Source: Lachnospiraceae bacterium
GTDB lineage: Bacteria > Bacillota_A > Clostridia > Lachnospirales > Lachnospiraceae
DNA: 38,388 nucleotides
NCBI GenBank assembly: GCA_021770615.1
Contig: JAETQR010000040.1
Span: forward strand, 1 to 38,388
Direction of reading: 5' to 3'
Part shown: piece after piece, positions 4,190 through 33,326 of the stretch
How the letters are laid out: the number at the start of each line of letters is the position of its first letter
How positions within the stretch are numbered: position 1 is the first letter of the stretch
The notes under the pieces: model-generated
What the model was told of the DNA's origin: nothing
Databases searched by the model: none
What the model saw: only the letters and a program-made list of their open reading frames with translations
Program-made: the position numbers and the translations under genes

Positions 4190-4211
4190 AATCATCGCCT
4201 CCTTCAACTGT

Positions 4212-15179: not shown

Positions 15180-15185
15180 TCACCA

Positions 15186-15220
15186 GGCGGCGGTACCTAC
15201 GAAGTGCCGCTGCCGTTTTT
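15186..15220 (+). terminator. Intrinsic terminator/attenuator before the polymerase gene
   Basis: GGCGGCGGTAC (15186-15196) pairs with GTGCCGCTGCC (15204-15214), two G-U or mismatch positions, followed by TTTTT at 15216-15220. It ends 16 bases before the polymerase ATG, so partial termination would reduce polymerase expression relative to the upstream genes. Confidence 0.7.
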
Positions 15221-15236
15221 GTAAAGGAAAAAGATT

Positions 15237-17222: not shown

Positions 17223-17229
17223 AAATATA

Positions 17230-17262
17230 GCGGCTTCCGGTACATTAACAACCAGAGGCCGC
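17230..17262 (-). terminator. Terminator between polymerase and defence island
   Basis: GCGGCTTCCGG (17230-17240) pairs with CCAGAGGCCGC (17252-17262) with two imperfect positions. Read on the minus strand the stem is followed by TATATTTTT, giving an intrinsic terminator for the leftward island. It may also slow rightward polymerase transcripts. Confidence 0.65.
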
Positions 17263-17268
17263 ATTGTC

Positions 17269-18279
17269 TTAATTTCCAGTATTATCGTAAATTACATACT
17301 GTTCAGCGTTATCTTCTATAATTTTATTGTATTTTTGAACTGCTTCATCAGTAATATGTGTAACACAGTAAACAGGATCTGTATCAGACTTTTTCCCCTG
17401 CGCTAATAGAATTCTCGGAGTTATTGGCATAATTCCTACCTTGCTTCCATCTTCACGCAAATGTACAAAGGACGGGTTATCACTTGTAACATATTTTGTA
17501 ACGCCATCAGCAATAAGAAAATGAAAGCTTGTATGTTGTAAGCTCTGTTGTACATGTTCATATATTGGACCATCATCATTCAAGAATCGTCTGTAAAGTT
17601 TTAGTAATAAACAGTGCTTGAAATAATCTGCCATTGTTTCAAAAAATGGAAGTTCTCTCTCCTCTTCAGGTATTTCCACCTCATCCATAGATAATACCTC
17701 AACACCTAACCATTGAAACTGGTCTGTAAATAAAGGCTCTGAAGCTATACTTCTCCAATCTATAGAAATAAAGAATTTCATTAAGAACTCTTTATCAAAC
17801 TCAGGGATTTCTCCTGAAACCGTCAATACATTATTCTCTATTGTATTTCTGACATTGGTCCATTTGTTTTCATATTTAACTGACCAGTTTTCCTCTATAT
17901 CACGTATTTTAACTTGATCAATTGCAGCTTTTATTGGCTTTTTTGATGCGATGGTACCATCAGACTTCCGAGTTATCTCCCAACTACCAAAGTCATAGTA
18001 TATTTGGTTAAGTTCAAGATTACTGGTGACTTCTTTTCCTTCATACACAACCTTATAATCTTTCATAATTGAGAAAATATTGTCTGCATCATCCGCCGTG
18101 CAAATAGGCATACCAGCAACTATTGAATGATAATGGTTAATCCCGCACAAATTATCTTTATTCTTTGTATCAAATTCCCCCGTAACAAGATTCTTATACT
18201 TTAGCGTTCCTGATGCATTTGCCCAAGCTGACATGTACGTTTGAGGAATTAGATGATGATATTTAGCTTTATTCCCCAT
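17269..18279 (-). CDS. DUF4238 domain protein
   Basis: Product of 336 aa. It opens with the family hallmark YHHLIPQTYMSAWAN (residues 7-21) and has the late TSDNPSFVH stretch near residue 275 typical of DUF4238. The biochemical role of the family is not established; such proteins are frequent in defence islands. The ATG overlaps the mcrC stop (TAATG), so it is translated with McrBC and is probably a third component or modulator. It is the last gene before the terminator. The conserved His-His and Asp-Asn residues could form an active site, but this is speculation. Confidence 0.8.
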   Translation of the reverse strand: MGNKAKYHHLIPQTYMSAWANASGTLKYKNLVTGEFDTKNKDNLCGINHYHSIVAGMPICTADDADNIFSIMKDYKVVYEGKEVTSNLELNQIYYDFGSWEITRKSDGTIASKKPIKAAIDQVKIRDIEENWSVKYENKWTNVRNTIENNVLTVSGEIPEFDKEFLMKFFISIDWRSIASEPLFTDQFQWLGVEVLSMDEVEIPEEERELPFFETMADYFKHCLLLKLYRRFLNDDGPIYEHVQQSLQHTSFHFLIADGVTKYVTSDNPSFVHLREDGSKVGIMPITPRILLAQGKKSDTDPVYCVTHITDEAVQKYNKIIEDNAEQYVIYDNTGN

Positions 18280-19322
18280 TACAATGCTCCCTTATTAAAA
18301 TATTCTTCTACAATCCCATCCAACTGCTTCCTAATCTCAGCAAACTCCATGTTCAGATCCAATGTCCTAACACTAATCCGGTTACCACTCATCTTGTATT
18401 TTTGATCTGGCTGTATTTCTTCTTCAGTCTTAGCATACAAGAGCATACCGCCAACCTCGTGCGGTTCTTCTCTCAGTTCATATTCCTTGTTCTTTACATA
18501 AGTGAAAATCTGGTACAGATTATTGGAATGCAACGTGTGCTTATCATACTGTGTCTGTGTTGTATGTTCATAATACTTCGCATCAATGATGAGAACCTTC
18601 GCCCCTTGCGACAGCATAATATCACTCTTCATTACCGGAAGCATATCACTGGAATCATCATCCAACTGCCAAGGAATCTGTGATGCATTAGCTGTAATCT
18701 CAGGATGCTCTTTTCTGTAATACTCCAGAATGAATTTCTCATAGAGTCTGCACATTCTTTGTTCATCAACAAACTGCATCAGCTTCGTTCTTCCATCAGT
18801 TGTAGTCTGCAGTAATCCCTTTAACACCAAGTAGCATATAGACACCAACATCCGATAGGTTTGGTTATTTCTTGAATACTGCTGGTTCCAATTTATAGAA
18901 TGAACGTCTAACTCCTGTACCTCATCATAAAACACAAGAATCTTTCTAATATCTTTCTTCCTCGACTTACCAATATCAGAATGAAGAAGTTTCAACATGG
19001 TGGTCTTGATAATACGGTTCATATATGTGTTCACGGAAAACTCATCATAAGTACAAACCATCTGCCTTCTCAGCATCGTCTGTTTTTTGATAGATTCCGT
19101 AATATCAATCTTTCCCCTAAGCCCAGATAACGTCTCCGTCTCAGAGATATAGTCCCGGCCAAGTCCTCTCTTCAACTGCAGTGAAACACCCTTTGTCAGA
19201 ATTGCCGCACACAACTCAGCCACATTATTAAATTGTTCTGTAGCTACATTCTTGTATCCGTCTTCATTGAGGACTTGGAATGCGTATGCCAGCATATGGT
19301 AAACATTCTGTACAGGTATCAC
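18279..19322 (-). CDS. mcrC: McrC-like nuclease subunit of modification-dependent restriction system
   Basis: Product of 347 aa of the McrC family. The N-terminal part interacts with the McrB ring and stimulates its GTPase. The C-terminal PD-(D/E)XK nuclease has MKSD (D234) and VLIIDAKYY (D247, K249). Family members cleave DNA carrying modified bases after McrB translocation. The start ATG overlaps the mcrB stop in an ATGA arrangement and the stop overlaps the DUF4238 start. Active-site residues appear intact, so the protein is predicted functional. Confidence 0.9.
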   Translation of the reverse strand: MIPVQNVYHMLAYAFQVLNEDGYKNVATEQFNNVAELCAAILTKGVSLQLKRGLGRDYISETETLSGLRGKIDITESIKKQTMLRRQMVCTYDEFSVNTYMNRIIKTTMLKLLHSDIGKSRKKDIRKILVFYDEVQELDVHSINWNQQYSRNNQTYRMLVSICYLVLKGLLQTTTDGRTKLMQFVDEQRMCRLYEKFILEYYRKEHPEITANASQIPWQLDDDSSDMLPVMKSDIMLSQGAKVLIIDAKYYEHTTQTQYDKHTLHSNNLYQIFTYVKNKEYELREEPHEVGGMLLYAKTEEEIQPDQKYKMSGNRISVRTLDLNMEFAEIRKQLDGIVEEYFNKGAL

Positions 19323-21487
19323 TTAATAGAACTCCTTAATTTTTCAATCCAATCCTTTACCTTGATTGGGTCATCATACCAATATTCCTTAAGCAACGGT
19401 ATCATCTCATACTCAACAATATTTGAAAGCGCCTTATCTGTAATAGCAGTCAAATTACAGAAATAACTATGTCCAATGCAGAATCCTTCTCCTAACGAAT
19501 CATCCGCTGCAATGACCGCATTAAGCTTTTCAACACAATCAACAAGACTATCAAACTTTGCATTTGCAAAAGCCATCTTATATTCTCTGAATCCTTCGCT
19601 CTCAAATCCTGGCTTCATCTCAAAGAAAGCAAACCTACGACGTAAAGCATAGTCCAACATTGCCAAGCTTCTATCAGCAGTATTCATCATTCCAATGATA
19701 TAGAGTTTTGGAGGTACAGAGAATTTATCTCCTGAATACAATAACTGCAACGCATTTCCTCTCTTATCATTTTCAATCAACATAAATAATTCGCCGAAAA
19801 TCTTGCTCAAATTTCCTCTGTTGATTTCATCAATAATAAAGAAATATTCATTATCCGGATCTTCTGCTGCCTTCTTACAGAAACTAGCAAATGCTCCCTT
19901 TTTGATTTCAAAGCTACTACTTGTACTTGAAGGTCTGAATCCTTCGATAAAGTCCTCGTATGTATAACTCTGGTGGAATTGAACCATCATGACACGATTC
20001 TGATCCTTACACCCCATCATAGAGTATGCCAAACGTTTTGCTGCAAATGTCTTTCCAACCCCCGGAGCACCCTGAAGAATTACATTTCTTTTCATGCGAA
20101 TAAGCTCAACCAATGTGTCATAGCTATCACCATCCATATATACGTCTTCCAAGAATTTTTCTGGAGTGTATTCAGGAAATAAAGTTTCCTCTTGTTCTAC
20201 ACCATCCCCATCTTCGTTTTCATCAATCAATGCATTCAGCTTCGCCACATAATCTGTATATGCCGTGATATCTGTCAGAGTCTTCATAGCCGCCTGTCCA
20301 GGGTGAGGCCAATCGCCAGAATTCGTCCAGTTAACTTTACGAATATTGGGATAATCTGAATCTGTTGTGTCGTAGATATATTCTGATATAACGACTCCAC
20401 GACCAATTATTGAATGCATACCTCTTTTTGCAAAAACAATATCTCCTGGTTTCATTTCCTGTAAGAATTGCCAAGTAGCATGCGCATCATTTTTATACGG
20501 CTTTGTTGGATCTATTTTATCCTTCATTGCAATTTTCATTTCATACTTGGAGCTATACTGTGAAAAATCTCCTATCTCACTCCACCCAAGTCCCATTACT
20601 CCACGCTTGTAGAACTCGTCCCACTTACAAGCACCATCTCCCGGCGCATAAATCCAGAAATGAACTGTTTCAACATCGTCATCAGCTAAACCGGAGCCCT
20701 TCTGATCACGTTGTTTTTGTGACTGCACAGCTTTTTTCTCTTCATTTACTTGAGTTGAATACCTCCATGCTTCAAAAGATAACTCTTTAAAATCATGGAG
20801 ACTACATTTCCCACTCTTCAAATACTCACGTAACTTTTCCACTATTGCAAAATACTTACTTGCAGCTATTTTTACCTCTATCTCAGGAAGGCTTGCTACA
20901 ACATCTTCCGGAATCTTACCAGATTCATAAATATACCATTCGTTACGACTATCGAGATTAAGAAATGCATTTGGAGAAATCCAGTATAGACCCATTGTAA
21001 TTTTACTGTTTGCATTTCCCTTTTTATTAATAACCAAGTCAAAATGCTTGCATACAATATCCTTATTATCTTCGGATGGATTCTTTGAATAAATCATTGC
21101 CGATTCAAATAAATTCCAAAGATCGTCAATGTCATTTTCTCCTCTAGCATCATTAAAATAATAAAATGTTGCATTCAGATTATTCAGAACCGGAATACTC
21201 TCAAATGATGTAGGCACAACTGAAGAAACATTAAATAAATCTTTAATGACTGTAAGAATCTTTATTCTATTTGCTTCGCGCATCGAACTCTTATTGAATA
21301 GACCAAACACAGTAAAAGGATCTATATCTTTGATCTCATTGTTCCATTCTAAAGTTGGCATATTGATACCAGTCTCAGCATAGATTGCTTTAACTTTCTT
21401 TACCAATTCCTCTCTATTGTTTTTGTAAGCCAGAAGCTTACCGGCAAACTCCTTATAGAAATCCACCCATACAAATTGATTGTCCAT
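19319..21487 (-). CDS. mcrB: McrB-like AAA+ GTPase with EVE-like reader domain
   Basis: Product of 722 aa. The N-terminal ~260 residues form a helical region of unknown specificity. About residues 280-385 (VHFWIYAPGDGACKWDEFYKRG, then GDIVFAKRGMHSIIGRGVV) resemble an EVE/PUA-type modified-base reader. The C-terminal AAA+ module carries Walker A GAPGVGKT at 473-480, Walker B FFIIDE near 549-554, and the McrB signature MMNTADRSLAMLDYALRRRF starting near 600. It forms a GTP-driven ring that loads McrC on modified DNA. AAGGAGG precedes the ATG. Separated by 31 bases from the SfsA-like gene upstream, it belongs to the same leftward island. Confidence 0.9.
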   Translation of the reverse strand: MDNQFVWVDFYKEFAGKLLAYKNNREELVKKVKAIYAETGINMPTLEWNNEIKDIDPFTVFGLFNKSSMREANRIKILTVIKDLFNVSSVVPTSFESIPVLNNLNATFYYFNDARGENDIDDLWNLFESAMIYSKNPSEDNKDIVCKHFDLVINKKGNANSKITMGLYWISPNAFLNLDSRNEWYIYESGKIPEDVVASLPEIEVKIAASKYFAIVEKLREYLKSGKCSLHDFKELSFEAWRYSTQVNEEKKAVQSQKQRDQKGSGLADDDVETVHFWIYAPGDGACKWDEFYKRGVMGLGWSEIGDFSQYSSKYEMKIAMKDKIDPTKPYKNDAHATWQFLQEMKPGDIVFAKRGMHSIIGRGVVISEYIYDTTDSDYPNIRKVNWTNSGDWPHPGQAAMKTLTDITAYTDYVAKLNALIDENEDGDGVEQEETLFPEYTPEKFLEDVYMDGDSYDTLVELIRMKRNVILQGAPGVGKTFAAKRLAYSMMGCKDQNRVMMVQFHQSYTYEDFIEGFRPSSTSSSFEIKKGAFASFCKKAAEDPDNEYFFIIDEINRGNLSKIFGELFMLIENDKRGNALQLLYSGDKFSVPPKLYIIGMMNTADRSLAMLDYALRRRFAFFEMKPGFESEGFREYKMAFANAKFDSLVDCVEKLNAVIAADDSLGEGFCIGHSYFCNLTAITDKALSNIVEYEMIPLLKEYWYDDPIKVKDWIEKLRSSIK

Positions 21488-21518: not shown

Positions 21519-22238
21519 CTAATTCTCAGGCTCTAGTATTCCAATGCATCCATCAATTGCAATCGGTCCTCTAACACATAATTCATGCTCAGATGTTTTA
21601 ATACTAAATGCTTTATATATCATACCGGCTTCAATACATTCTTTGAATTCCGAATAGAATTCTGTGTCTTCTTTTACTGTGACAAGCTTTACTGTAGGAC
21701 TTAAAACGGCAAACATATAGCAAAATTTATATCCATCTTTTAGCAATTTCTTTATCCTCCTCAACTGTTCAATGGATCTTTCTGAATAAACAGTTGGAAA
21801 TTCTGCCTCTTTTCTATCTGAGATAATTGTTTTTACCTCAATCAGCATATTGCTATCCTCAACATATAAATCTGCTTTATATCCTGCTTCTGTTTTTTCT
21901 CTGAGTATATTTTGCCTTTTCCCCAAAAAACTAAAAATACGTCTATGAAGCTGTTCTTGCAGCGTATTATTAGCCATAGATAGATTTAACAAAATATATC
22001 CATTTCCCTTTTTCACTGCATAGAGTGTATATTTGGTTTTTGAAGCACTTTCACCTTTAGGCAAAAGCAAAACTTCTTTACCCTCCAAATAAATGAATTG
22101 CGACAATCTACATGAAGATGCCACATAACACAATTCTTCCTGCCCATCCACCTCTACGATGCACCTAAATCTATTCTTTATCTCACAGCGAAAAATGCCA
22201 TGAGTAATGTATTCTTCTATCCTCATGGCATTCCTCAT
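21519..22238 (-). CDS. SfsA-like DNA/RNA nuclease in a defence operon
   Basis: Product of 239 aa. The N-terminal half matches the OB-like domain of SfsA proteins (RCIVEVDGQEELCYVASSCRL, KTKYTLYAVKKGN, ILLNLSMANN). The C-terminal half is the SfsA PD-(D/E)XK domain: ADLYVEDSNMLIEVKTI with D123, E134 and K136, then FPTVYSERSIEQLRRIKKL, where ordinary SfsA has FPD...TERG..HL. Conventional SfsA is a chromosomal nuclease-like protein of unclear physiology. This copy is divergent and co-encoded with restriction genes, so a cleavage role in defence is inferred. The ATG overlaps the upstream gene's stop (TAATG). Confidence 0.75.
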   Translation of the reverse strand: MRNAMRIEEYITHGIFRCEIKNRFRCIVEVDGQEELCYVASSCRLSQFIYLEGKEVLLLPKGESASKTKYTLYAVKKGNGYILLNLSMANNTLQEQLHRRIFSFLGKRQNILREKTEAGYKADLYVEDSNMLIEVKTIISDRKEAEFPTVYSERSIEQLRRIKKLLKDGYKFCYMFAVLSPTVKLVTVKEDTEFYSEFKECIEAGMIYKAFSIKTSEHELCVRGPIAIDGCIGILEPEN

Positions 22239-22600
22239 TACTCACAAAGAGAGCATATCGTCGGCATACCATCGGTCTCGATAACCTCACCGATTTTAAG
22301 TAAGCCAAACACCATCAAGGCTCTTGCATATATGTATGGTGTATCAGTCTCAGGATAAATTGCCCTTAAGAGTTGTGAAAGCTGTCCATCTTTGTCTACT
22401 GTACCTATGTTGTAATTGTTACCGCCACTATCTGCCACAGCATACTTTGAAGGATCAAATTCTTCAAAATGATTTTTTAAGGCATATGCCAATGCGAACT
22501 TTGCCGCAGTAATAACATTTTCAAATTTTCCAGTCGCCACCAAAGCCTCTGCTATATCATTTGACTCCTTTGACAGTCGTATATTTACAAGATCAGTCAT
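22238..22600 (-). CDS. Small hypothetical protein of the defence operon (120 aa)
   Basis: The N-terminus NIRLSKESNDIAEALVATGKF, then ITAAKFALAYALKNHFEEFDP, looks like a small helical DNA-binding fold, recalling DndE- or RHH-like proteins only in style. It ends with CSLC, a possible metal-binding pair. TAGGAGG lies seven bases before the ATG. It is encoded between the DndD-like ATPase (11 bases upstream) and the SfsA-like nuclease (one-base overlap), so it probably partners one of them. I cannot assign a family. A DndE assignment was considered but the match is too weak. Confidence 0.65.
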   Translation of the reverse strand: MTDLVNIRLSKESNDIAEALVATGKFENVITAAKFALAYALKNHFEEFDPSKYAVADSGGNNYNIGTVDKDGQLSQLLRAIYPETDTPYIYARALMVFGLLKIGEVIETDGMPTICSLCE

Positions 22601-22611
22601 TTATTTTCCTC

Positions 22612-24612
22612 CTACTGCATCTCAATTTGCGTATTAAAAGAAGTATATCTTTGCAAACGATACTCTCGTTTTAATTCAGGTCCCAGGGTATCACGAGCTG
22701 TTTGCTCATCAATTTCATGAGTATATGCCAGCAATACAATCTGCTCTGACATTTTAGGCAAAACCTTCGTAATGTTACTCTTATGAGTAGGATCCAAACG
22801 ACCAAAAGGTGAATCCATGATAATCGGCCCTCGAAGTGGTGCATTTTTATGCAAAGCTCCGATTAACGATAATGCCACAACATGCTCAAAGCCAGCAGAT
22901 CTTAATGGTACAATTTCACCTGATGAGTGAACCATATATAAGCCGTAGTTATCATTAATCTTCAAGCTTGTATAATCCGGATCATTACTAATTTGCACAA
23001 AAAGCTCTGTTGCGTCTCTCTCAACATCATCCTTTAATTTGTCACGATAGGAAGCTATTCCTTCCTCAAATATTCTATTAATTGCCTCGCAAAGCTCAAC
23101 CTTTCGCTTTGCAATTTGAGTTTCTGAATCTGTTGAAACCTTGTTAAGCTTATCTTCTAAAGTGGCAAGAGCACTCTCCACCTCCTTGATTTTATCCTTT
23201 TCCAACTGGATGCCATCTCTAAGATTGTCTATTTTCTTTAAACAGTTAGCAAGCTGCTTTACATTTTCTTTTGCGCCTTTGGAAAGTTCTTCAACATCAC
23301 CATGTCTTTCTAATTCCTCACGAACAGTTTTTCTCTGGCGTTCTGCGTCATCAATTTCAACCTCTAATGTAGAAAGCTGTGCTTCCAGCAATTCCAATAT
23401 TTCTTTCTTACTATCTGCTTTCATACTCTGAAGAGTGCTTTTTCTTACTCTCAATTCCTGCAGAACCTTAATTTCATCATCAGACAAACCACCATATTCG
23501 CTGGATGCATCTGTAATTCTTTTAATAAGTTCCTCAAGCTTTTCATCTGGAATATCCTGATCACATAAATGGCAATGGTGCTTCTCAGCTGCCGCTTTCA
23601 TTTCTTTCATGAAGTGACTAGCAACTTTATGTGCACTCTCTCTATCCTCAAGATCCTTCAGTTGAGATTCAATTGCAGTTAACATTAGTTCAACACGGCT
23701 ACTTACAAGACCTTTCCAAGCTTCACCAGTTGCAACTACAATGCTAGTAAGAATTGCCTCTCTACTTGCCTTCTTTTCTTCAATTGTTGCATCTAAATCG
23801 TCCAAACTCTTAAGCAGCGAAGATACATGCTCACTCTGCTGAGCTTCGTCCTCCAGCTTTGCCTTTGTATCAAGTTCAATCGTGAGTTCTCCCTTCAGTC
23901 TTTCAAGCTCAACAGCTTGCTCCTGCTTTTCTGCCTCAAGCACAGACATTTGAGATGCAATCTTTTGGGTTTGCGCATTACTCTGCGCAATCTTATTTTT
24001 CTCTTTTCTGTACTCTTCTAAAGCAGAATTGGTATCTATAGCTCCATTAGTAAGTACCGGAACACCAAGTATCTGCTCGATAGACTCCTTAATTGTTGCT
24101 CCTGTCTGTGTCCCCTCCATAAGAAGTTCCTCATATTCCTGAAGAAGCTCTCCATCGAACAAGAAAAATCTTGAAACCTCACTTGGCATTATGAGATTAA
24201 GCTCATGTTCGCGTTGATCTGGCGAAAGAATAGCTCCTTCTTTTTTTAGAAAAACATGCTCTTCATAATCGTCATTTCTTTGAGGATTAATTATACCCTT
24301 TCTGACAACATACTGCCGTGTAAGCTCATAATGGATTCCATCATTCAGCATCTTTAATACGACCTTAAAGTCATATTTCCCATCCTTTTTACCTTCTAAG
24401 TTTGCTAGACTTGGAAGATCAACATCAACTCCACGTCTGTTCTGATACTTTCCAAACAATGCATAGCGAATAATGTTTAATAAAGTAGTTTTTCCTCTTC
24501 CATTATTTCCCCAAATAATAGTAACACCATCTGCATCAACAAAATCTACTGTCTGAGTGCCTTTAAATGGGCCAAAATTTTCTATCACTAAACCAGTGAA
24601 CTGTAGCATCAT
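22612..24612 (-). CDS. DndD/Rad50-like SMC ATPase
   Basis: Product of 666 aa. The N-terminal ABC head has Walker A GNNGRGKT at 35-42 and the DndD-like stretch RFFLFDGELLQEYEEL at 148-163. Two long coiled coils (about 195-345 and 365-500) flank a Rad50-type zinc hook, CHLC, at 347-350. The C-terminal head has a signature region FEHVVALSLIGAL and Walker B RGPIIMDSPFGRLD near 595-607. In Dnd and related systems such ATPases couple DNA sensing to modification or restriction. It overlaps the upstream 69-75-codon gene by four bases, and its partner here is probably the PLD-helicase and/or the SfsA-like nuclease. Confidence 0.87.
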   Translation of the reverse strand: MMLQFTGLVIENFGPFKGTQTVDFVDADGVTIIWGNNGRGKTTLLNIIRYALFGKYQNRRGVDVDLPSLANLEGKKDGKYDFKVVLKMLNDGIHYELTRQYVVRKGIINPQRNDDYEEHVFLKKEGAILSPDQREHELNLIMPSEVSRFFLFDGELLQEYEELLMEGTQTGATIKESIEQILGVPVLTNGAIDTNSALEEYRKEKNKIAQSNAQTQKIASQMSVLEAEKQEQAVELERLKGELTIELDTKAKLEDEAQQSEHVSSLLKSLDDLDATIEEKKASREAILTSIVVATGEAWKGLVSSRVELMLTAIESQLKDLEDRESAHKVASHFMKEMKAAAEKHHCHLCDQDIPDEKLEELIKRITDASSEYGGLSDDEIKVLQELRVRKSTLQSMKADSKKEILELLEAQLSTLEVEIDDAERQRKTVREELERHGDVEELSKGAKENVKQLANCLKKIDNLRDGIQLEKDKIKEVESALATLEDKLNKVSTDSETQIAKRKVELCEAINRIFEEGIASYRDKLKDDVERDATELFVQISNDPDYTSLKINDNYGLYMVHSSGEIVPLRSAGFEHVVALSLIGALHKNAPLRGPIIMDSPFGRLDPTHKSNITKVLPKMSEQIVLLAYTHEIDEQTARDTLGPELKREYRLQRYTSFNTQIEMQ

Positions 24613-24818
24613 TCCACCTCCTCTGCCTGGACATTTTTCAGGAACTCATCAATTAGTTTCTTTGTTCCTTTTTTCGCCTGTGCCCGATCATCCTGTTGTT
24701 CAAATTCGTTAGCAACTATCTCGCGAATTAATTCCTCTGGGATTTCCGGATATTTCTCTTTGCGGATTATTTCCAGGACACCTATTAACTCCTCAACCTC
24801 TACATTACTCTTCATCAT
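24609..24818 (-). CDS. Small acidic/helical protein of the defence operon
   Basis: A 69-codon ORF beginning MMKSNVEVEELIGVLEIIRK, continuing with YPEIPEELIREIVANEFEQQ and a helical KKGTKKLIDEFLKN tail. It overlaps the helicase stop by 14 bases and the ATPase start by four, so it is deeply embedded in the operon. The longer version starting at 24836 would overlap the helicase gene by 32 bases; a GGAGG within the helicase C-terminus stands 11 bases before the ATG chosen here. No recognised family. It may be an adaptor linking helicase and ATPase. Confidence 0.6.
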   Translation of the reverse strand: MMKSNVEVEELIGVLEIIRKEKYPEIPEELIREIVANEFEQQDDRAQAKKGTKKLIDEFLKNVQAEEVE

Positions 24819-26934
24819 CGTCTTCAATACCTCCATCTTTAATGGTGTCGTAATTTATCTTATAATCAATTGCTATATTTTTTAAATCCGTAACACATGC
24901 CGGATTTTCCGCACTTTCTCCAAATTGAATAGCTCTTGATAATTCCGCTGCTATGATAGACATACCTTTTTCATTCTCATCCTCCGCCACTACTGGGACC
25001 GTTATTGCATCATATAAATGAGCAAATAGCTTACCAGCGGAGTTCCGAAGTATTCTACCTCTTCTTTGAATAAATTCTCTTGGGTTTTGGGATGAGGCTA
25101 ACACCAGCGCATCTGTTGTAGATGGTATATCTACACCTTCATCCAAACATTTAATTGACACCAGTACCCCACCATTTTGAGAAAAATATTCAAGTGTTGT
25201 ATCTCTGTCGCCTTCCATTTCTGCGTAATATTCATACGCATCAAACCCTGCAGTTCTTGCTTGCGAACATACTTCATTTAACTGCGAAATATTATCACAA
25301 TAAATAATCCATTTCTGTCCAGGCTTGAACTTTTCTTTCAAGAGCTTGATTGCCAAAGGAACCTTTCCAGACGCATTCTTTACAATTCTGGATCTGTTAA
25401 TCAGCAGTTGTTTTAATCTAGGATTAGAATTAATATTAATGTTTCCATTGGCCTTATTCCCCATACGTGCCAGCACTGTACGAATTTCATTTGTTATTGT
25501 ATCCCACTCTTCCTGCTCCCTTGATGAAAGGCTGATTCGCTGCGGATAATAAAAATACCTTGTTAGAACACCACTTTTAATGGCGTCCTCCAATGTAAAC
25601 GGTGGAGGAATCAAACCACCAAAATAACCAAACAAGGCCCGTGTTCCTTCAGGATCACCGTACCTTCTTGGTGTAGCAGACAATCCCAATCTAGCTCCAG
25701 AATCTATTGAAAGGATTTTCCTTCTTTTCGGGCTTCCCATTCTATGCATTTCATCTGCAACCATCATCAGATGCTCCCCTTGACTTAGCCTTTTGATAAA
25801 ATCATTAGAACTAGCCGTATCCATAGTCGCTATGATTATTCGATGTGTATCCTTACTTTTCCGGCTCCAAGAAGCTAATTTTTCTCCCTTTTTCCACTCG
25901 GAATTATTGTCCCCACACAGTAAATATAAAACCTCTATCTCTGTTAAAGTTTTCCTAAGTTCCTTATTCCATTGCTTCAACAAATCCCTAGAAGGAACTA
26001 GTACAAGAACTGTCTCATTCCTCTTAAGCGCATTATTAATTGCACACATTGCTGTGAATGTTTTACCGCTGCCTGTTGCATGCTCAAAAATGCCTCGTCT
26101 ACCATTTTTTTCCCACGCTTCAAGAGCATTTGTCTGGTGCTTACGCGGAGTTCTCGCCTGCGGCCCAAATCCCGGTTTCCATTTTAGCGCCTTATTCTCC
26201 GATACTTTAATCTCTTCAAGTAATTCTTGCCATTTGATTCCGTCTGTTTTGGCCTTTAATATTTCCTTTGCTGCTGACGGAAAACTATATAGTTGAATTC
26301 CAGGAATCATGTGTTTCCACAGCTTGTCAAAAAAAACTGCTGCCTCTTCTACACGTTCACGATCTCTATGATCAAGCCAATTAGGAAAAACGTCTATAGA
26401 TTCTATATTTCCATCTTCTGCTAATCCTTTGAAGGTTTCGTTCATCGATCCTCTAAAGCCTACCATATTGCCTTCAGAATCATAAAAAACGCCAACCTTA
26501 TCGTGGAATAAACGCTTCGCAGATGGGGATTCATTTCCCGTTGGAACCGCAATCCTCACGTCAATTATTCCTTCGACAACTAAATATGCTAAAAGCTTTG
26601 AAGGTGCTGACAAATCCGGGCTACCAAGCATGCCTTCAACTTCTTTTATTATTGCATTTGCAAGAATTTCATCGTTTCTTGCGGAATAGCCATCAGATAA
26701 CGCCAATTCATCAGCTTCTGAAATATACGGTGAGCAAATCACCCGCATCTTCCCTTTGTTTTCTATAAAATCCTTCAATGCATCCCAAGCTATAATATAG
26801 ATAGTACTTCCAAAATATCCTGATATTCTATCATATCTATTGGCATTTCTCATACACGGTAAATAGAAGTCATTTGCAATATCATTTTCCGCCTTATTAT
26901 AGGAAGTTGCATAATTTAAGTCATCTAGAGCCAT
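24805..26934 (-). CDS. PLD-nuclease/DEAD helicase fusion restriction protein
   Basis: Product of 709 aa. The N-terminal ~210 residues form a phospholipase D-like nuclease with FHDK (H144, K146) and GSMN (162-165), the HxK...GSxN pattern, preceded by SGYFGS. The SF2 helicase follows with Walker A ATGSGKT at 286-292, ADEMH near 393-397, SATPRR at 419-424, a helicase C domain with SIKCLDEGVDIPST, and motif VI QRRGRILRN. PLD nucleases paired with helicases are known in ATP-dependent restriction systems such as NgoAVII/CglI, where they are separate proteins; here they are fused. The ATG has GGAGG six bases upstream and overlaps the preceding gene by 14 bases. Confidence 0.88.
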   Translation of the reverse strand: MALDDLNYATSYNKAENDIANDFYLPCMRNANRYDRISGYFGSTIYIIAWDALKDFIENKGKMRVICSPYISEADELALSDGYSARNDEILANAIIKEVEGMLGSPDLSAPSKLLAYLVVEGIIDVRIAVPTGNESPSAKRLFHDKVGVFYDSEGNMVGFRGSMNETFKGLAEDGNIESIDVFPNWLDHRDRERVEEAAVFFDKLWKHMIPGIQLYSFPSAAKEILKAKTDGIKWQELLEEIKVSENKALKWKPGFGPQARTPRKHQTNALEAWEKNGRRGIFEHATGSGKTFTAMCAINNALKRNETVLVLVPSRDLLKQWNKELRKTLTEIEVLYLLCGDNNSEWKKGEKLASWSRKSKDTHRIIIATMDTASSNDFIKRLSQGEHLMMVADEMHRMGSPKRRKILSIDSGARLGLSATPRRYGDPEGTRALFGYFGGLIPPPFTLEDAIKSGVLTRYFYYPQRISLSSREQEEWDTITNEIRTVLARMGNKANGNININSNPRLKQLLINRSRIVKNASGKVPLAIKLLKEKFKPGQKWIIYCDNISQLNEVCSQARTAGFDAYEYYAEMEGDRDTTLEYFSQNGGVLVSIKCLDEGVDIPSTTDALVLASSQNPREFIQRRGRILRNSAGKLFAHLYDAITVPVVAEDENEKGMSIIAAELSRAIQFGESAENPACVTDLKNIAIDYKINYDTIKDGGIEDDDEE

Positions 26935-27469
26935 TGATATCCTCCAAAATGCTTTTTTTCATTATATTGATTCTTTCCTTTATCGCTTCATACAAATATT
27001 GTGGACGTGCAGAAACGATAATTTCATTATTTGTTCTTCTGCTACATACAAATTTCTTATAGGTTGCCATAATAATAGCATCGGACTTCACCTGTATATT
27101 ACTGCTAAAAGATATTACGTCATGCTTGTCAGCATCCCATAACACAAACACTCCACCATCACCTTCTTGTGCATAAGCAGCAAGAATAGGCATGCGCCCA
27201 TCAGAATAGTCTAATCTCGCTTTTTCTTTTTTCTTTTGCCCTGGTAAAATTAGCTGAGCCTTATACTCATCAGCAGCACGTCCACCAGGTGGATTAGTCA
27301 AATTAAAAAGATATGCCCTTAATCTGTATTCCGCTCCTGTAGGTGCCTGTAGATCAATCAGCAAAGGGGCACTATCATCATCACTTGACCACTTAATGTA
27401 ACCTCTAAGTCCCTCCAAAAAGATTTTATTAAGCTCCTGTTTCCTTAATTTTTTCGGATTATCAGGCAT
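26921..27469 (-). CDS. Unknown methyltransferase-linked protein (182 aa)
   Basis: Starts MPDNPKKLRKQELNKIF. The body contains APTGAEYRLRAYLFNLTNPP, a charged RAADEYKAQLILPGQ strand, then DGRMPILAAYAQEGDGGVFVLWDADKHDVI and FSSNIQVKSDAI. The alternating beta strands and QVK-like triplet resemble a small restriction-type or DNA-recognition fold, but no catalytic set is secure. AGGAGG stands nine bases before the ATG at 27469; a start at 27475 is too close to it. It overlaps the methyltransferase upstream by eight bases and the PLD-helicase downstream by 14, so it probably provides specificity or a bridge between modification and restriction. Confidence 0.7.
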   Translation of the reverse strand: MPDNPKKLRKQELNKIFLEGLRGYIKWSSDDDSAPLLIDLQAPTGAEYRLRAYLFNLTNPPGGRAADEYKAQLILPGQKKKEKARLDYSDGRMPILAAYAQEGDGGVFVLWDADKHDVISFSSNIQVKSDAIIMATYKKFVCSRRTNNEIIVSARPQYLYEAIKERINIMKKSILEDINGSR

Positions 27470-28316
27470 TCGCATTCACCTCCTGGCGAGTCTCCTTTAG
27501 CCACTGTTTTGCATCCTCCACATAATCACTAACAAGATCAAACCCAGCAAATCTTCTCCCAAGCTTTACTGCCATATAGCCGGTAGTCCCACTACCGAGC
27601 CAAGGATCAACCACCAAATCCCCCTCGTTAGTAGTAGCTTTTATATATTTTTCTGGCAAATAAAACGGCTGTGTAGCCTGATGATTTCCAATCCTCGCTG
27701 ATACCGGACCAGTTATTATATTTTTGGGCAATGCACCCAATGGATTCGGCTGAATCTTTTTATTCTTTCTGACATATGTATTTCCATTTGACCTTGGCTT
27801 ATATTCATATCCCTCATAGGTTTTTACACTATGCGATTCATAGGGGCGCCTTATAGCATCCAAATTAATACTCCACTTTGGCGCAACTGAAAACCATAAA
27901 TTCTGCTCATAAGCGTCCTGACATGCAACGCGTAAGCCTGTTGGTGCAGGATTTTCCTTGACCCATATTTCAATATCTACGCAATGTAATCCCCAATCCT
28001 CCTCAAGCTTTATCGCAAGCTTTTCAACTACAAGCGACCTTTTTGATGAAGTTATTGATGTTGATTTTTCTCTGTTAGCCTTAACATTAATAACCAGGAA
28101 GCCATCATCTGTAAGCTTTGGAATAGCTGCATCAATAAATGGACTTATTTTATCAATATACTCTGCCGATTTCCAATTTCCATAATCACGATCTGCATTT
28201 GGGTATGGCGGAGAACCGTACACCAGCTTTATAGATCTATCTGGTAATGCAAGCATTCCACTTGCACCATCCTGACATGCGACAGCAAAGCCATCTCTAT
28301 TTATCTGATTGATCAT
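27462..28316 (-). CDS. DNA methyltransferase B, beta-class SPPY type (N4-cytosine/N6-adenine)
   Basis: Product of 284 aa, S-adenosylmethionine-dependent amino methyltransferase. Catalytic motif IV GSPPY is at 34-38 and the AdoMet-binding motif I VDPWLGSGTTG at about 236-246 follows it, which defines the beta class. FAGFDL corresponds to motif II. SPPY in place of DPPY is frequent among N4-cytosine enzymes but does not prove the target. AAGGAG nine bases before the ATG at 28316 supports this start over a TTG two codons earlier. It overlaps the companion methyltransferase upstream by 20 bases. Confidence 0.88.
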   Translation of the reverse strand: MINQINRDGFAVACQDGASGMLALPDRSIKLVYGSPPYPNADRDYGNWKSAEYIDKISPFIDAAIPKLTDDGFLVINVKANREKSTSITSSKRSLVVEKLAIKLEEDWGLHCVDIEIWVKENPAPTGLRVACQDAYEQNLWFSVAPKWSINLDAIRRPYESHSVKTYEGYEYKPRSNGNTYVRKNKKIQPNPLGALPKNIITGPVSARIGNHQATQPFYLPEKYIKATTNEGDLVVDPWLGSGTTGYMAVKLGRRFAGFDLVSDYVEDAKQWLKETRQEVNANA

Positions 28317-29241
28317 TTGCAATTTCTCCTTCTTTGTCAGTCGCCTGTCGTTCTTCTTCCTCTTGTTCCAGTCTTGCTGATGCTAATTCACAATACTCAG
28401 AATTAGCATCAATTCCTATCCACCTACGATTATTCTTACTTGCTACTGCTGCTGTAGTTCCAGACCCGGAGAAGGGATCTAATACTATTTCGCCCTCCAT
28501 GCTTCCAGATAATATAAAGAATTCAGCCAACTTTTCTGGGAAACGTGCCGGATGAGCAATATGCTTTTCTTTGCATAGTTTTATAAACATATCATTGCTG
28601 CTTGTGTTGGCAATTTCAATTACGGAACCAGGATCTGCTCCCCCATTATTTGTCCACACCTTTTCGCAGTTAAAGTTGTGTGTACTTGGTCTAGTGTTTT
28701 GATTACGATCTCCTTTTCCCTTGCCTTCTAGGTACTTTTGCATATCTTTACTATAGGGCTTACGGATAGGATCCATATCAAATGTCCATTTGTCAGATTT
28801 TGCAAACCAAAAACAATATTCATGTGATTTTTTTGTTCTCCCATAGCCACCTCGGGAGTATACATTTGGCGGGGTCGCTGGATTATACCAAATATAATCT
28901 CGAACAAGATGAAAGCCAACTTGATTACAAAGAGCTACAACGAGTTCAAATACATATAAATGCTGAAATCCATCAACAACCTTGTCATTAATATTTAAAA
29001 CAAAACTCCCATCATCCTTCAATAATTTATATATCTGCTTCGCTTTTGGAATAAACCACTTAACATAATCATTTGGATCAATAGATGATTCTGTCCTTCC
29101 ATAATCACGCTGATCAGCATAAGGTGGAGAAGTTAACACCAGGTCAATACTTTTTTCTGGCATGGTCTTCATTACTTCTTCACAGTCTCCAATAATAAAT
29201 CTATTTTCAAAATCTTTTAGTGTGCTTTTTCGTCTGCCCAA
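28297..29241 (-). CDS. DNA methyltransferase A, beta-class TSPPY type
   Basis: Product of 314 aa. Motif IV TSPPY is at 37-41 and motif I LDPFSGSGTTAA near 254-265, with GIDANSEYCELA as motif II: beta-class amino methyltransferase, probably N4-cytosine. It is paralogous in plan to the next gene, yet the inserts between motifs differ (here a Gly/Lys-rich KYLEGKGKGDRNQNT loop), so the two may methylate different strands of an asymmetric site. The start is TTG at 29241, preceded by GAGGTG; no ATG is better placed. The HTH controller lies 24 bases upstream. Confidence 0.88.
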   Translation of the reverse strand: MGRRKSTLKDFENRFIIGDCEEVMKTMPEKSIDLVLTSPPYADQRDYGRTESSIDPNDYVKWFIPKAKQIYKLLKDDGSFVLNINDKVVDGFQHLYVFELVVALCNQVGFHLVRDYIWYNPATPPNVYSRGGYGRTKKSHEYCFWFAKSDKWTFDMDPIRKPYSKDMQKYLEGKGKGDRNQNTRPSTHNFNCEKVWTNNGGADPGSVIEIANTSSNDMFIKLCKEKHIAHPARFPEKLAEFFILSGSMEGEIVLDPFSGSGTTAAVASKNNRRWIGIDANSEYCELASARLEQEEEERQATDKEGEIANDQSDK

Positions 29242-29265
29242 GATAACACCTCTTCCTAATCTATT

Positions 29266-29496
29266 TTAACCCTCATGAACATCATGCTGTTCTACGGGCT
29301 CTAATTCCATAATGTCAGAGAGTTCACAATCTAGTGCATTACATATTCGTACAAGCACATCTGTAGTAACATTCTCATTCTTACCCAGCTTGGCCATAGA
29401 GGATGAGCTAATGCCAGTTGCTGCCCTAAGATCCTTTTTTTTCATATCCTTATCTATAAGCATTTTCCATAGTTTCTTATAACTTACGCCAGACAT
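29266..29496 (-). CDS. Cro/C1-type HTH controller of the defence island
   Basis: Product of 76 aa, a single HTH domain: YKKLWKMLIDKDMKKKDLRAA, then ISSSSMAKLGKNENVTTDVLVRICNALDC, the YozG/Xre-type pattern. Short HTH proteins preceding methyltransferases often time modification before restriction, as C-proteins do. AGGAGG stands four bases before the ATG. It is the promoter-proximal gene of the leftward island, and a 12-bp palindrome in its own leader is a likely operator. Confidence 0.85.
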   Translation of the reverse strand: MSGVSYKKLWKMLIDKDMKKKDLRAATGISSSSMAKLGKNENVTTDVLVRICNALDCELSDIMELEPVEQHDVHEG

Positions 29497-29539: not shown

Positions 29540-29606
29540 TTGCTATAGCAAATTAAAAATCTGTTTTCTCAGAATTTATTATAACCCAACTTGCTCCATT
29601 TCTCAA
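29540..29606 (-). promoter_or_regulatory. Promoter and palindromic operator of the defence island
   Basis: Minus-strand -35 TTGAGA (plus 29601-29606), 17-bp spacer, perfect -10 TATAAT (plus 29578-29583). About 25 bases downstream of the -10, in the leader of the HTH gene, is the perfect palindrome TTGCTATAGCAA (29540-29551), a plausible roadblock operator for the HTH controller. Confidence 0.7.
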
Positions 29607-29685: not shown

Positions 29686-29703
29686 AGAGAGGTGGACATA
29701 CTT

Positions 29704-30069
29704 ATGGAAGAAATAACATTTGGAAAATATTTATCGCAGCTACGTGAAAAGAAGGATGTAACCTTGCGAGAACTCGCTCGTCAAATTGGTGTTTCAGCAC
29801 CTTTCCTTAGTGATGTTGAGAAGGATCGAAAACCTCCTCTTACAGCAGAGCGCCTCGAAAAAGTAGCCGAAGCACTTCATCTATCAAAGGAAGAACGTGA
29901 TGAAATGAACATACTCATTGGAAAACAAAGAGGTACCATTGCTCCTGACCTACCAGAATATATCATGCATGATTATGTTAGTAATGCCTTGCGCACAGCT
30001 AAGGATCTCGATGCCGGTGAAGAAGAATGGTTGCATTTTGTCGAAGAATTAAAAAAGAAGAAGAGGTAA
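29704..30069 (+). CDS. XRE-family repressor
   Basis: Product of 121 aa. The N-terminal HTH is FGKYLSQLREKKDVTLRELA, then GVSAPFLSDVEKDRKPPLTA, typical of ImmR-like repressors. The C-terminal helical part LPEYIMHDYVSNALRTAKDLD and the EEEWLHFVEELKKKKR tail are probably the oligomerisation and protease-recognition region. The ATG at 29704 follows GAGAGGTGG. The metalloprotease gene begins three bases after its stop, so this is an ImmR/ImmA-type pair: the repressor is inactivated by the protease on a stress or invasion signal, releasing the genes behind the shared operator. Confidence 0.88.
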   Translation: MEEITFGKYLSQLREKKDVTLRELARQIGVSAPFLSDVEKDRKPPLTAERLEKVAEALHLSKEERDEMNILIGKQRGTIAPDLPEYIMHDYVSNALRTAKDLDAGEEEWLHFVEELKKKKR

Positions 30070-32095: not shown

Positions 32096-32371
32096 TTATA
32101 CGCATTTTCTTACTTCCAATTGATACTTATCATGCCCCTTTATACTTCTCACTGCCTGGTTCAGAGTATTCGCTCTGCCATGCTGATGATAAGGGCACTT
32201 GAAGAAGTGCTTGTGAAATATGATGAGCGACTGCTCTGTAGGACACTCGGTACAGTGCAGATACCAGTAATGACCGGTGTTCCTACTCTGAATCGTGATA
32301 TCTCTATCATCCATCAGAATGATATTAAAGTACTCCGAATCGATTTTCTTAAGGCTACTTTCATCAAACAT
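32096..32371 (-). CDS. Small Cys/His-rich hypothetical protein downstream of ParB
   Basis: Product of 91 aa. MFDESSLKKIDSEYFNIILM is followed by a Cys/His-rich middle (HYWYLHCTECP, HKHFFKCPYHQH) that could bind zinc, and a basic tail. It overlaps the ParB stop by eight bases and is the last gene of the ParA-ParB operon. An ATG at 32380 is an alternative start. A rightward ORF covers the same stretch, but the overlap with ParB and the conserved-looking pattern favour this strand. No family assigned. Confidence 0.65.
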   Translation of the reverse strand: MFDESSLKKIDSEYFNIILMDDRDITIQSRNTGHYWYLHCTECPTEQSLIIFHKHFFKCPYHQHGRANTLNQAVRSIKGHDKYQLEVRKCV

Positions 32372-33326
32372 CGGCACCATCCTTCCCTTTATGGAACCAA
32401 GCTTCTAATGCCTGCTCTACAATATTGTCCACCTTATTAGGATCCATTCCAATAAAGTATTTTTCCACAATTCTTGCAGGCACCTTATAGCACTTCTTCT
32501 TTACCGGCTCCGTACTGAGATACCGCCTCACCATTGCATCCGTCAAAGCTCCTGAATGACTGCGAAGCTTCATCACCATTTCAATCGTAATCTTGGACTT
32601 CTTTTCCTTAATCACGTTATATACCATATTCTGCTCTTCCTCCGGAAGGAAGGCCAACTGCAAAGCAACCTTTGTATAAAGGGCACCTCTATCCACCATA
32701 TCCTTAAATGGCTTGATGAGATCATTCAGCTTCAGTAATCTCCCCACAGAACTTCCGGACAGTTCATATTCCTTGCCAATAGAATCTCTGGTAGTCAACT
32801 TCTGGTCACCGTGACCAGAAGTTACATCATCCGACTTTCCTTCCAATCTTGCAATCTCCCGAACAATATCATTCCTCTTGCCCTGGCAGGCTCCCTTCTC
32901 ATATCTCGCCTTCAGCACTGCTGCCTTTTCCGATATCAACAAATCCGAAAAGGACCTCTGCATCAGATTTGTCTCAATCACATAAACATAAGCCTCTTCC
33001 TCAGACAAATCTGTTTTCACAATAGCTGGCACTTCCTTTAGTCCGGCAAGCTTTGCTGCATTCATTCTGTTGTGTCCGGAAAGCATTTCATATCCGCCAT
33101 CAATCTTCTGCACGATTACCGGATTTAGAATTCCATGTTCCTTTACACTTGCAATCATATCCTCCAGCCGTTCTCCCTCGTATAAATGAAACGGATGGTC
33201 ATGGAATGGCTGAATGTTCTTTATCTGAATCAGCTGAACCCCTCTCGGAACTTGTCTTTCCTCAATTTCATCCATCAATAAATCCACTGCGTCACCAAAT
33301 ACTTTTCTTTTATCATTAGCCTTCAT
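32364..33326 (-). CDS. parB: ParB-like partition protein
   Basis: Product of 320 aa. The N-terminal ParB/Srx domain shows VQLIQIKNIQPFHDHPFHLY, then VKEHGILNPVIVQ and the box II-like GYEMLSGHNRMNAAKLAG. The central HTH region follows (ELSGSSVGRLLKLNDLIKPF). It binds centromere-like sites and works with ParA in segregation. The ATG at 33326 overlaps the parA stop; AAGGAG is about 10 bases upstream. Plasmid and conjugative-element versions look like this, so it supports an extrachromosomal phase of the element. Confidence 0.9.
   Translation of the reverse strand: MKANDKRKVFGDAVDLLMDEIEERQVPRGVQLIQIKNIQPFHDHPFHLYEGERLEDMIASVKEHGILNPVIVQKIDGGYEMLSGHNRMNAAKLAGLKEVPAIVKTDLSEEEAYVYVIETNLMQRSFSDLLISEKAAVLKARYEKGACQGKRNDIVREIARLEGKSDDVTSGHGDQKLTTRDSIGKEYELSGSSVGRLLKLNDLIKPFKDMVDRGALYTKVALQLAFLPEEEQNMVYNVIKEKKSKITIEMVMKLRSHSGALTDAMVRRYLSTEPVKKKCYKVPARIVEKYFIGMDPNKVDNIVEQALEAWFHKGKDGADV

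What the first reader, a model, noticed from the sequence alone, without database searches (positions are those of the whole stretch)
21519..29496. Candidate composite methylation-linked restriction system
Seen: nine leftward genes with overlaps or very short gaps encode an HTH, two SPPY methyltransferases, a 182-aa unknown, a PLD-helicase fusion, a small protein, a DndD/Rad50-like ATPase with zinc hook, a 120-aa unknown and an SfsA-like nuclease. Known: helicase + methylase + ATPase combinations (Hma as I recall) and PLD nuclease + helicase pairs (NgoAVII/CglI) exist. Inference: this set joins both ideas and adds an SfsA-like nuclease and two small adaptors, possibly an undescribed variant.
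Basis: partly seen in the sequence, partly recalled or inferred. Interest (0 to 1): 0.85.

Follow-up and report, generated by a model that had tools for sequence, protein, structure and literature searches.

The report
Prophage-borne Pbe/CxC-DndE methylation-linked restriction locus
A bacterial prophage carries a known but little-studied type of DNA-restriction operon, here paired with DNA methylases, and at its end sits a nuclease of a little-noticed family that also accompanies another branch of the same restriction systems.

Summary
The nine genes are real. They extend into a tight 12-gene run (29496 to 17269, minus strand) that adds McrB, McrC and a DUF4238 protein. The core is not undescribed: profile, synteny and fold evidence make it a CxC-ABC-ATPase/DndE system (PbeABCD) in its methylase + MTaX1 form, described by Rakesh et al. 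2024. The operon from the methylases to PbeD recurs in diverse Clostridia.

What looks new: (1) the SfsA-like gene belongs to a supported clade apart from the other SfsA proteins compared, with catalytic residues fully conserved. It follows the Pbe operon in 3 of 80 related loci and adjoins DndFGH-like operons in three further genomes. (2) The locus lies in a prophage; one related prophage has other defence-like genes at the same polA junction, another carries DndFGH-like genes plus this SfsA. (3) MTaX1 models like a PD-(D/E)XK nuclease (tentative). A divergent XRE/ImmA pair recurs.

Verdict: new variant of a known kind. The mechanism is inferred; nothing was tested experimentally.

The parts
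29692..30069 (+). XRE-family HTH regulator, divergent from the operon
   Evidence: Pfam HTH_31/HTH_3; homologues with ImmA at six PbeC loci: divergent upstream in L008, L009, L023, L048, downstream in L010, L013; XRE match alone in L003
30073..30816 (+). ImmA/IrrE-type metallopeptidase (Peptidase_M78), paired with the XRE regulator
   Evidence: Pfam PF06114 3e-10; same six loci
29578..29606 (-). promoter-like site TTGAGA-17-TATAAT, 11 of 12 matches, upstream of the first operon gene
   Evidence: 52 promoter-like sites in the region against 47.4 (sd 6.8) in shuffles, so weak on its own
29266..29496 (-). HTH_26 regulator, first gene of the operon
   Evidence: PF13443 4.8e-21; a homologue also precedes the DndFGH-like operon in genome G383 (L133, 92 bits)
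28297..29241 (-). MTase 1, SPPY amino-methyltransferase, probably cytosine-N4
   Evidence: PF01555 3.5e-52; closest solved relative M.PvuII (N4-cytosine) 3e-53
27462..28322 (-). MTase 2, second SPPY amino-methyltransferase
   Evidence: PF01555 1.3e-35; M.PvuII 8.8e-16, adenine enzyme MboIIA 4.8e-14, so base undecided
26921..27475 (-). MTaX1 protein; PD-(D/E)XK-like fold predicted, tentative
24805..26934 (-). PbeA: HKD (PLD-like) nuclease fused to SF2 helicase
   Evidence: PADLOC PbeA 1e-214; ResIII 5.1e-28; HKD-type pattern in the window protein and in 65 of 70 PbeA ORFs above 400 bits
24609..24836 (-). PbeB: small protein (SP)
   Evidence: PF20306 Sp-DndD 1e-6, over its cut-off; at the same place in 37 of 80 loci
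22612..24612 (-). PbeC: CxC-clade ABC ATPase with zinc hook
   Evidence: PADLOC PbeC 2.5e-243; TIGR03185 DndD 165 bits, below its cut-off of 246; invariant P-loop and CxxC cysteines
22238..22600 (-). PbeD: DndE-like double ribbon-helix-helix protein
   Evidence: No Pfam hit; AF2 pLDDT 92; Foldseek rows 1-16 all DndE structures (4lrv, 5wtu, 7x4e), prob 0.99-1.00, TM 0.54-0.65, best E 4e-3
21519..22238 (-). SfsA-clade (here 'dSfsA') OB + PD-(D/E)XK nuclease
   Evidence: PF03749 6.4e-14; clade with support 100/99; E114, D123, E134, K136 in 114 of 114 clade members, as also in the 22 other SfsA rows
19319..21487 (-). McrB-like AAA GTPase, probable operon continuation
   Evidence: NCBIfam PRK11331 2.3e-84, below its cut-off; AAA_5 1.3e-22; residues 288-400 match PADLOC PDC-S02
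18279..19322 (-). McrC-like protein
   Evidence: PF10117 2.4e-36
17269..18279 (-). DUF4238 protein, last gene before the phage polA junction
   Evidence: PF14022 2.4e-24
17241..17269 (.). junction: DNA homology with a related prophage (G001, contig C130) ends here
   Evidence: blastn of L123: 93% identity to window 15076-17241, no other match on that contig

Best explanation
This is a prophage-carried CxC-ABC-ATPase/DndE (PbeABCD) restriction operon that uses DNA methylation instead of phosphorothioation as its self mark, with an accessory SfsA-clade nuclease and a type IV (McrBC-like) tail. Inferred working: the two SPPY methyltransferases mark host and prophage DNA, probably with N4-methylcytosine; PbeC with PbeD/DndE scans DNA at sites chosen by DndE; the HKD-helicase PbeA, held in check by PbeB, attacks DNA lacking the mark; MTaX1 helps read or cut such DNA; the SfsA-clade nuclease is a second DNA cutter that works with, or backs up, the main complex; McrBC takes foreign DNA with other modifications. 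HTH_26 and the divergent XRE/ImmA pair control expression. Shown here: gene content, membership of the core, recurrence, intact motifs, prophage setting. Inferred: all activities, partners and order of events.
For: Core: PADLOC PbeA 1e-214 and PbeC 2.5e-243; Sp-DndD and MTaX1 Pfam hits; DndE fold for PbeD; composition described in PMC10853773. Recurrence: of 80 PbeC loci, PbeA beside PbeC in 76, PbeD within 300 nt in 57, MTaX1 in 45, an upstream MTase in 41, PbeB in 37 (some contigs are cut short). Methylation: MTase1 closest to M.PvuII. SfsA: directly after PbeD in L009 (gap 12) and L018 (gap 19), about 1.4 kb after it in L005; 8 SfsA/PbeC contig-length coincidences against 0.36 expected, one of them from near-copies of the window locus; clade and catalytic residues. 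Prophage: capsid, protease, portal, both terminases, HNH, helicase, annealing protein and an integrase fragment.
Against: Xiong et al. (PMC6459918; passages seen) report that DndCDEA-PbeABCD stops viral replication without cleaving viral DNA, so 'PbeA cuts' is contested. SfsA is present in only 3 of 80 loci, so the core does not need it. The bases and motifs of MTase1 and MTase2 are not determined. In 39 of 80 loci no upstream methylase match was found, in part because the contig ends. Most SfsA-clade rows of the tree have no known context. No transcript, phage or enzyme data exist here; the one-transcript reading rests on spacing and on the lack of a minus-strand terminator-like site between the genes.
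Confidence: 0.8

Rival explanations
1. The operon is an abortive (suicide) system: PbeB or the regulators release PbeA and SfsA to cut the host's own DNA on infection, with the methylases only setting a threshold.
For: Rakesh et al. [quoted passage not shown] SfsA sits at the end of the core.
Against: No toxicity data. Two methylases with MTaX1 fit self/non-self marking at least as well.
Confidence: 0.25
2. The SfsA-like gene and the McrBC genes are separate cargo that merely happen to lie next to the Pbe operon in a defence hotspot.
For: The slot after PbeD varies: SfsA, a sigma70-like protein in L014/L017/L065, or something else. The polA junction in a related prophage holds other genes. Tail genes vary (McrBC here, WYL + two GmrSD_N proteins in L018). 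SfsA is in 3 of 80 loci.
Against: SfsA touches PbeD (overlap 1, gaps 12 and 19) in the window, L009 and L018, and the same clade adjoins DndFGH-like operons in three more genomes. For McrBC, whose window proteins matched nothing else in the 80 loci, I have no such recurrence, so for it this rival stands.
Confidence: 0.3
3. A phosphorothioate system whose dndABC genes lie elsewhere in the genome; the methylases are an independent R-M pair.
For: PbeABCD was first described with DndCDEA (PMC6459918).
Against: The MTase-MTaX1-PbeA order recurs in Clostridia as one block. No sulfur-transfer gene appeared among the 20 window ORFs scanned by Pfam. The window's own assembly is not held, so the rest of the genome was not checked.
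Confidence: 0.1

Closest known systems
CxC-ABC-ATPase/DndE systems with methylases and MTaX1 (Rakesh, Aravind and Krishnan 2024, PMC10853773; the earlier paper of 2020 is not held and was not seen)
   Same: HKD+SF2 protein, small protein, ABC ATPase with hook, DndE, cytosine methylases, MTaX1
   Different: SfsA-clade nuclease, McrBC continuation, XRE/ImmA pair and prophage setting: 'sfsa', 'mcrbc', 'imma', 'prophage' occur 0 times each in its main text. Supplements were not seen.
DndCDEA-PbeABCD of haloarchaea (Xiong 2019, PMC6459918, passages seen)
   Same: PbeABCD core
   Different: There the mark is phosphorothioate; here two methylases head the operon and no sulfur-transfer gene was found among the 20 window ORFs scanned by Pfam
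DndFGH/SspFGH
   Same: The same SfsA clade adjoins DndF/SspF- and SspH-like genes in G383, G1078 and G816
   Different: No such gene among the window proteins scanned with PADLOC
SfsA of the ordinary kind (TIGR00230; PD-(D/E)XK prediction in PMC1189080, passages seen)
   Same: OB + PD-(D/E)XK architecture, same catalytic residues; solved relatives 4da2, 4dap
   Different: Below the NCBIfam cut-off (73 of 126 bits); other side of a branch with 100/99 support; 23-34% identity to the listed same-order SfsA matches other than the G383 copy
Hma; NgoAVII/CglI (recalled from the finding and memory)
   Same: Helicase + methylase + ATPase; PLD nuclease + helicase
   Different: Best profile matches of PbeA and PbeC are Pbe models, not these

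Membership tests
CxC-ABC-ATPase/DndE (PbeABCD) system | CxC-clade ABC ATPase (PbeC) with zinc hook | tested here: met
   PADLOC PbeC 2.5e-243; hook cysteines invariant. By letter the hook is CxxC: so in 64 of the 65 PbeC ORFs under the 12 commonest patterns shown, 6 of them CECC, which also reads as CxC
CxC-ABC-ATPase/DndE (PbeABCD) system | cognate DndE (double RHH) next to the ATPase | tested here: met
   AF2 model and Foldseek, DndE in rows 1-16, best E 4e-3; no sequence hit in Pfam or PDB
CxC-ABC-ATPase/DndE (PbeABCD) system | HKD nuclease fused to SF2 helicase (PbeA) | tested here: met
   PADLOC PbeA 1e-214; motifs
CxC-ABC-ATPase/DndE (PbeABCD) system | small protein PbeB/SP | tested here: met
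   PF20306 1e-6, 29.2 bits against a cut-off of 27.2
CxC-ABC-ATPase/DndE (PbeABCD) system | methylase + MTaX1 variant | tested here: met
   Two PF01555, one PF20296
CxC-ABC-ATPase/DndE (PbeABCD) system | anti-phage activity | not testable with these tools
   needs phage challenge
Phosphorothioate Dnd system | dndC/dndA (sulfur transfer) genes | tested here: inconclusive
   None among the 20 window ORFs scanned by Pfam; host assembly not held
SfsA equivalog (TIGR00230) | score over curated cut-off | tested here: not met
   73.1 against 126.45 bits; other side of a supported branch
PD-(D/E)XK nuclease (SfsA-clade gene) | D, E-x-K catalytic motif | tested here: met
   D123, E134, K136 in 114 of 114, E114 too; activity not tested
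PD-(D/E)XK nuclease (MTaX1) | fold and D...ExK motif | tested here: inconclusive
Hma | Hma helicase, methylase and ATPase as best match | tested here: inconclusive
   No Hma model among the best 25 shown for MTase1, MTase2, PbeA and PbeC; lower ranks not shown
NgoAVII/CglI type | separate PLD nuclease and helicase genes | tested here: not met
   One fused PbeA gene; the definition is recalled

The most novel reading that the evidence does not exclude
The SfsA clade is a shared effector of Dnd-type immunity: one nuclease that plugs into both DndE-ATPase scanners (Pbe) and DndFGH machines, carried by a family of prophages whose polA-side locus swaps whole restriction operons while keeping the same starter HTH and the same terminal nuclease. 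MTaX1 would be a further, so far unrecognised PD-(D/E)XK cutter, so the locus would bear three different nucleases serving one mark.
Probability: 0.3. Interest if true: 0.75.

Novelty: new variant of a known kind. Interest (0 to 1): 0.52.

Why it matters
How PbeABCD stops phages is disputed: replication block without cleavage (Xiong 2019), or cleavage or suicide (Rakesh 2024). A compact methylation-linked version in a prophage, with a separate nuclease that also sits beside DndFGH-like operons, gives a direct way to ask which component cuts DNA, and whether the two Dnd branches share an effector. The prophage setting suggests that phages distribute these systems, perhaps to exclude competitors, and the MTaX1 fold prediction gives a testable role to a domain so far placed only by its neighbours.

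Tried and rejected
Considered and rejected: (a) an undescribed Hma x NgoAVII hybrid: profiles and print point to PbeABCD. (b) SfsA as the host's ordinary SfsA: clade and identity speak against it, and G383 has both kinds. (c) DndE by sequence: no Pfam or PDB sequence hit, hence the model. (d) MTaX1 and the SfsA clade as relatives: hhalign found no link. (e) MTaX1 by Foldseek alone: no significant match in PDB or in the viral library. (f) The middle part of McrB looks EVE-like by eye only; Pfam lists no EVE domain there.

Led nowhere or spoke against: PbeC in 392 genomes of the order, 0 at E 1e-30 (the tool warns that an empty answer without a positive control shows nothing); the SfsA protein in 391 genomes of the class, 0 at E 1e-25 (the genomes overlap in part with those). 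PbeC in phage records: three weak matches, 26-28% identity over at most 53% of the query; SfsA in phage records: none. PbeC in plasmids: 35 records, all under 60% identity. SfsA in plasmids: two records, 28-30% identity, annotated sfsA. Viral contigs: with PbeC one weak match of 48 residues, with the window SfsA alone none. Of 14 genomes with Pbe loci, 9 have a portal match and 5 a DUF2800 match, but only for L004 and L048 could I tie DUF2800 to the Pbe contig. The repeat search gave no att-like pair that I could name.

Limits: the genome scan is a PbeC-pattern scan of one genome per species and kept the best 80 of 110 loci; counts are of loci, not independent events (L006/L007 are near-copies). 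Non-overlapping ORF picks dropped shorter overlapping ORFs. Of the 112 SfsA homologues, 109 of 200 aa or more entered the tree; 12 rows were labelled Pbe there, 8 of them by contig-length coincidence only. Of the 1318 PbeC homologues only the best 120 were listed.
Full report
Observation. The nine leftward ORFs exist where stated, with overlaps of up to 32 nt or gaps of at most 24 nt. The run goes on: McrB (gap 31), McrC and a DUF4238 protein on the same strand, so up to twelve genes from 29496 to 17269. The terminator scan shows no minus-strand terminator-like site between these genes; the two listed lie inside PbeA and PbeC. The best promoter-like site of the region (11 of 12) lies just upstream of the first gene. 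A PbeC identical over its whole length at the precision shown is listed for Roseburia faecis (P0114), which suggests the host; the window's own assembly is not held.

Identity of the core. PADLOC profiles name PbeA (1e-214) and PbeC (2.5e-243). Pfam names the 184-aa protein MTaX1 (5.6e-22) and the 75-aa protein Sp-DndD (1e-6). The 120-aa protein has no Pfam hit; its model (pLDDT 92) matches DndE crystal structures in Foldseek rows 1-16 with probability 0.99-1.00, although no E-value is below 0.001. Rakesh et al. 2024 (PMC10853773; abstract, passages and sections 16, 17 and 22 seen) describe this set, with cytosine-N4 methylases and MTaX1, as the CxC-ABC-ATPase/DndE system and equate it with PbeABCD. 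The core is therefore known.

Recurrence. A PbeC profile scan of one genome per species kept 80 of 110 loci. With the window proteins as probes, PbeA lies upstream of PbeC in 76 of 80, PbeD within 300 nt in 57, MTaX1 in 45, at least one methylase upstream in 41, PbeB in 37. Some contigs end too early to tell. Among the 20 loci with PbeC over 500 bits, 10 have two or more methylase matches and 3 have one; of the seven without, six begin near or inside the operon. The order MTase1-MTase2-MTaX1-PbeA-PbeB-PbeC-PbeD is kept in L003-L009, L018, L023, L035, L042 and L048 (12 loci; PbeC of L009 lies in two ORFs, L006 and L007 are near-copies). An XRE/ImmA pair lies divergently upstream in L008, L009, L023, L048 and the window, and downstream in L010 and L013.

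Methylases. MTase1 is closest to M.PvuII, an N4-cytosine enzyme (3e-53). MTase2 matches M.PvuII too (8.8e-16), but adenine enzymes follow closely, so its base is open.

The SfsA-like gene. Identity to the listed SfsA matches of the same order, other than one in G383, is 23-34%. The homologues share 40-64% with it, apart from a near-copy (P0001, 99%). A tree of 136 rows puts 114 of them (109 homologues, the window, L005, L009, L018, L112) on one side of a branch with support 100/99, and 22 other SfsA rows (21 from same-order genomes, which I take for the ordinary kind, and the distant L063) on the other; the root is not known. Residues E114, D123, E134 and K136 are present in 114 of 114, and in the 22 others too, so the nuclease site is intact but not special. 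In the PbeC scan, 3 of 80 loci (74 with more than 1.2 kb downstream) hold an SfsA of this clade within 3 kb: L009 Mogibacterium pumilum and L018 Oscillibacter valericigenes (directly after PbeD) and L005 Dysosmobacter MAG (two same-strand ORFs in between). In addition, 8 of 112 SfsA homologues share an exact longest-contig length with one of the 120 listed PbeC homologues, against 0.36 expected in jittered lists (maximum 4 in 5000); one of the eight is a near-copy of the window locus. This is indirect. Most clade members have no known context.

A second partner. Searches that started from SfsA gave one close match in 392 genomes of the order (G383) and two in 398 of the phylum (G1078, G816); a search of 391 genomes of the class gave none at E 1e-25. 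In all three the gene adjoins an operon with DndF/SspF-like proteins (E 9.7e-17, 2.9e-9, 1.8e-26) and SspH-like proteins (7.9e-63, 9.9e-57, 2.5e-77) that are homologous to one another. The gene between them has no PADLOC hit. A DruA-like (DUF4338) protein precedes, fused to the F-like part in G383; the relation of the G1078 and G816 proteins to it is by blastp. Rakesh et al. mention DUF4338 fused to DndF. In G383 and G816 SfsA is downstream on the same strand; in G1078 it is convergent and overlaps the end of the SspH-like gene. With an alignment of the clade, 2 of 3 pattern matches in viral contigs were confirmed: L125 appears to be this same G383 locus, and L126 has the gene after a DUF1156/HmaB/PglX-like methylase.

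Prophage. The left part of the window encodes capsid, maturation protease, portal, both terminases, HNH, a helicase and a Gp2.5-like annealing protein (PHROGs), D5 primase-helicase, DUF2800 and polymerase A; an integrase fragment lies right of the locus. In G001 the same polA (93% DNA identity) is followed from the same point by an ImmA-like protein (by eye), an ORF pair that looks GmrSD-like by eye (PADLOC HEC-05, 5.5e-11) and a PDC-S21-like protein, not by Pbe. In G383, homologues of the window's D5, polA, annealing protein and DUF2800 (235-958 bits) lie within about 25 kb of the SfsA gene, and a homologue of the window's HTH_26 (92 bits) lies just before the DndFGH-like operon. DUF2800 also lies near the Pbe operon in L004 and L048. 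Other Pbe loci have a phage-type integrase (L023), or a serine recombinase and MobA/MobL (L006) nearby. So the system travels on mobile elements; a phage hotspot is suggested by two comparisons only. Against a wide phage association: only weak PbeC matches in annotated phage records and one in viral contigs.

Mechanism. Most likely: methylases mark self DNA; PbeC-PbeD scans; PbeA, restrained by PbeB, acts on unmarked DNA; MTaX1 and SfsA assist or back up; McrBC deals with other modified DNA. The alternatives are host suicide and unrelated cargo. Xiong et al. (passages) reported no viral DNA cleavage by PbeABCD, which counts against a cutting PbeA and would leave room for a separate nuclease such as SfsA. 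A 2025 review (PMC12707154, passages) also calls the restriction event obscure.

Novelty. New variant of a known kind. The statement that the SfsA link to Pbe or DndFGH is not in print rests on searches and on the parts of PMC10853773 named above; its supplements and the 2020 paper (not held) were not seen. A 2005 paper predicted SfsA to be a PD-(D/E)XK nuclease and noted an SfsA-family gene in one Dehalococcoides cluster with COG4127 genes, a family also seen beside R-M genes (PMC1189080, passages). A 2009 paper on prokaryotic Argonautes also holds the word SfsA once (listing only).

Noticed in passing
L014:12396-14099, L017:11814-13574, L065:12395-14062: The slot right after PbeD holds homologous 555-586 aa proteins with sigma70 regions 2 and 4, MzaA-like in PADLOC (only L014 tested).
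   Followed up: partly
L018:13119-18100: After PbeD-SfsA come a WYL regulator and two GmrSD_N proteins, another type IV-like tail in place of McrBC.
   Followed up: no
L129:8647-17125: Genes beside the DndFGH-like/SfsA locus in G1078 look by eye like Tn7-type transposition genes; not scanned by any profile.
   Followed up: no
L126:6911-10690: SfsA-clade gene directly after a DUF1156/HmaB/PglX-like methylase in a viral contig, near genes that look by eye like lysin and serine recombinases.
   Followed up: partly
L123:1512-3368: A gene of the G001 prophage that looks GmrSD-like by eye appears in two ORFs, perhaps broken; left as is.
   Followed up: no
window 3567-4255: Small gene pair between portal and terminase, by eye RelBE-like; homologues occur together in L014 18069-18697.
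   Followed up: no
window 32364-34101: ParB (PF02195) and a ParA-like protein (by eye) right of the regulators, near an integrase fragment; the element might partition like a plasmid.
   Followed up: no
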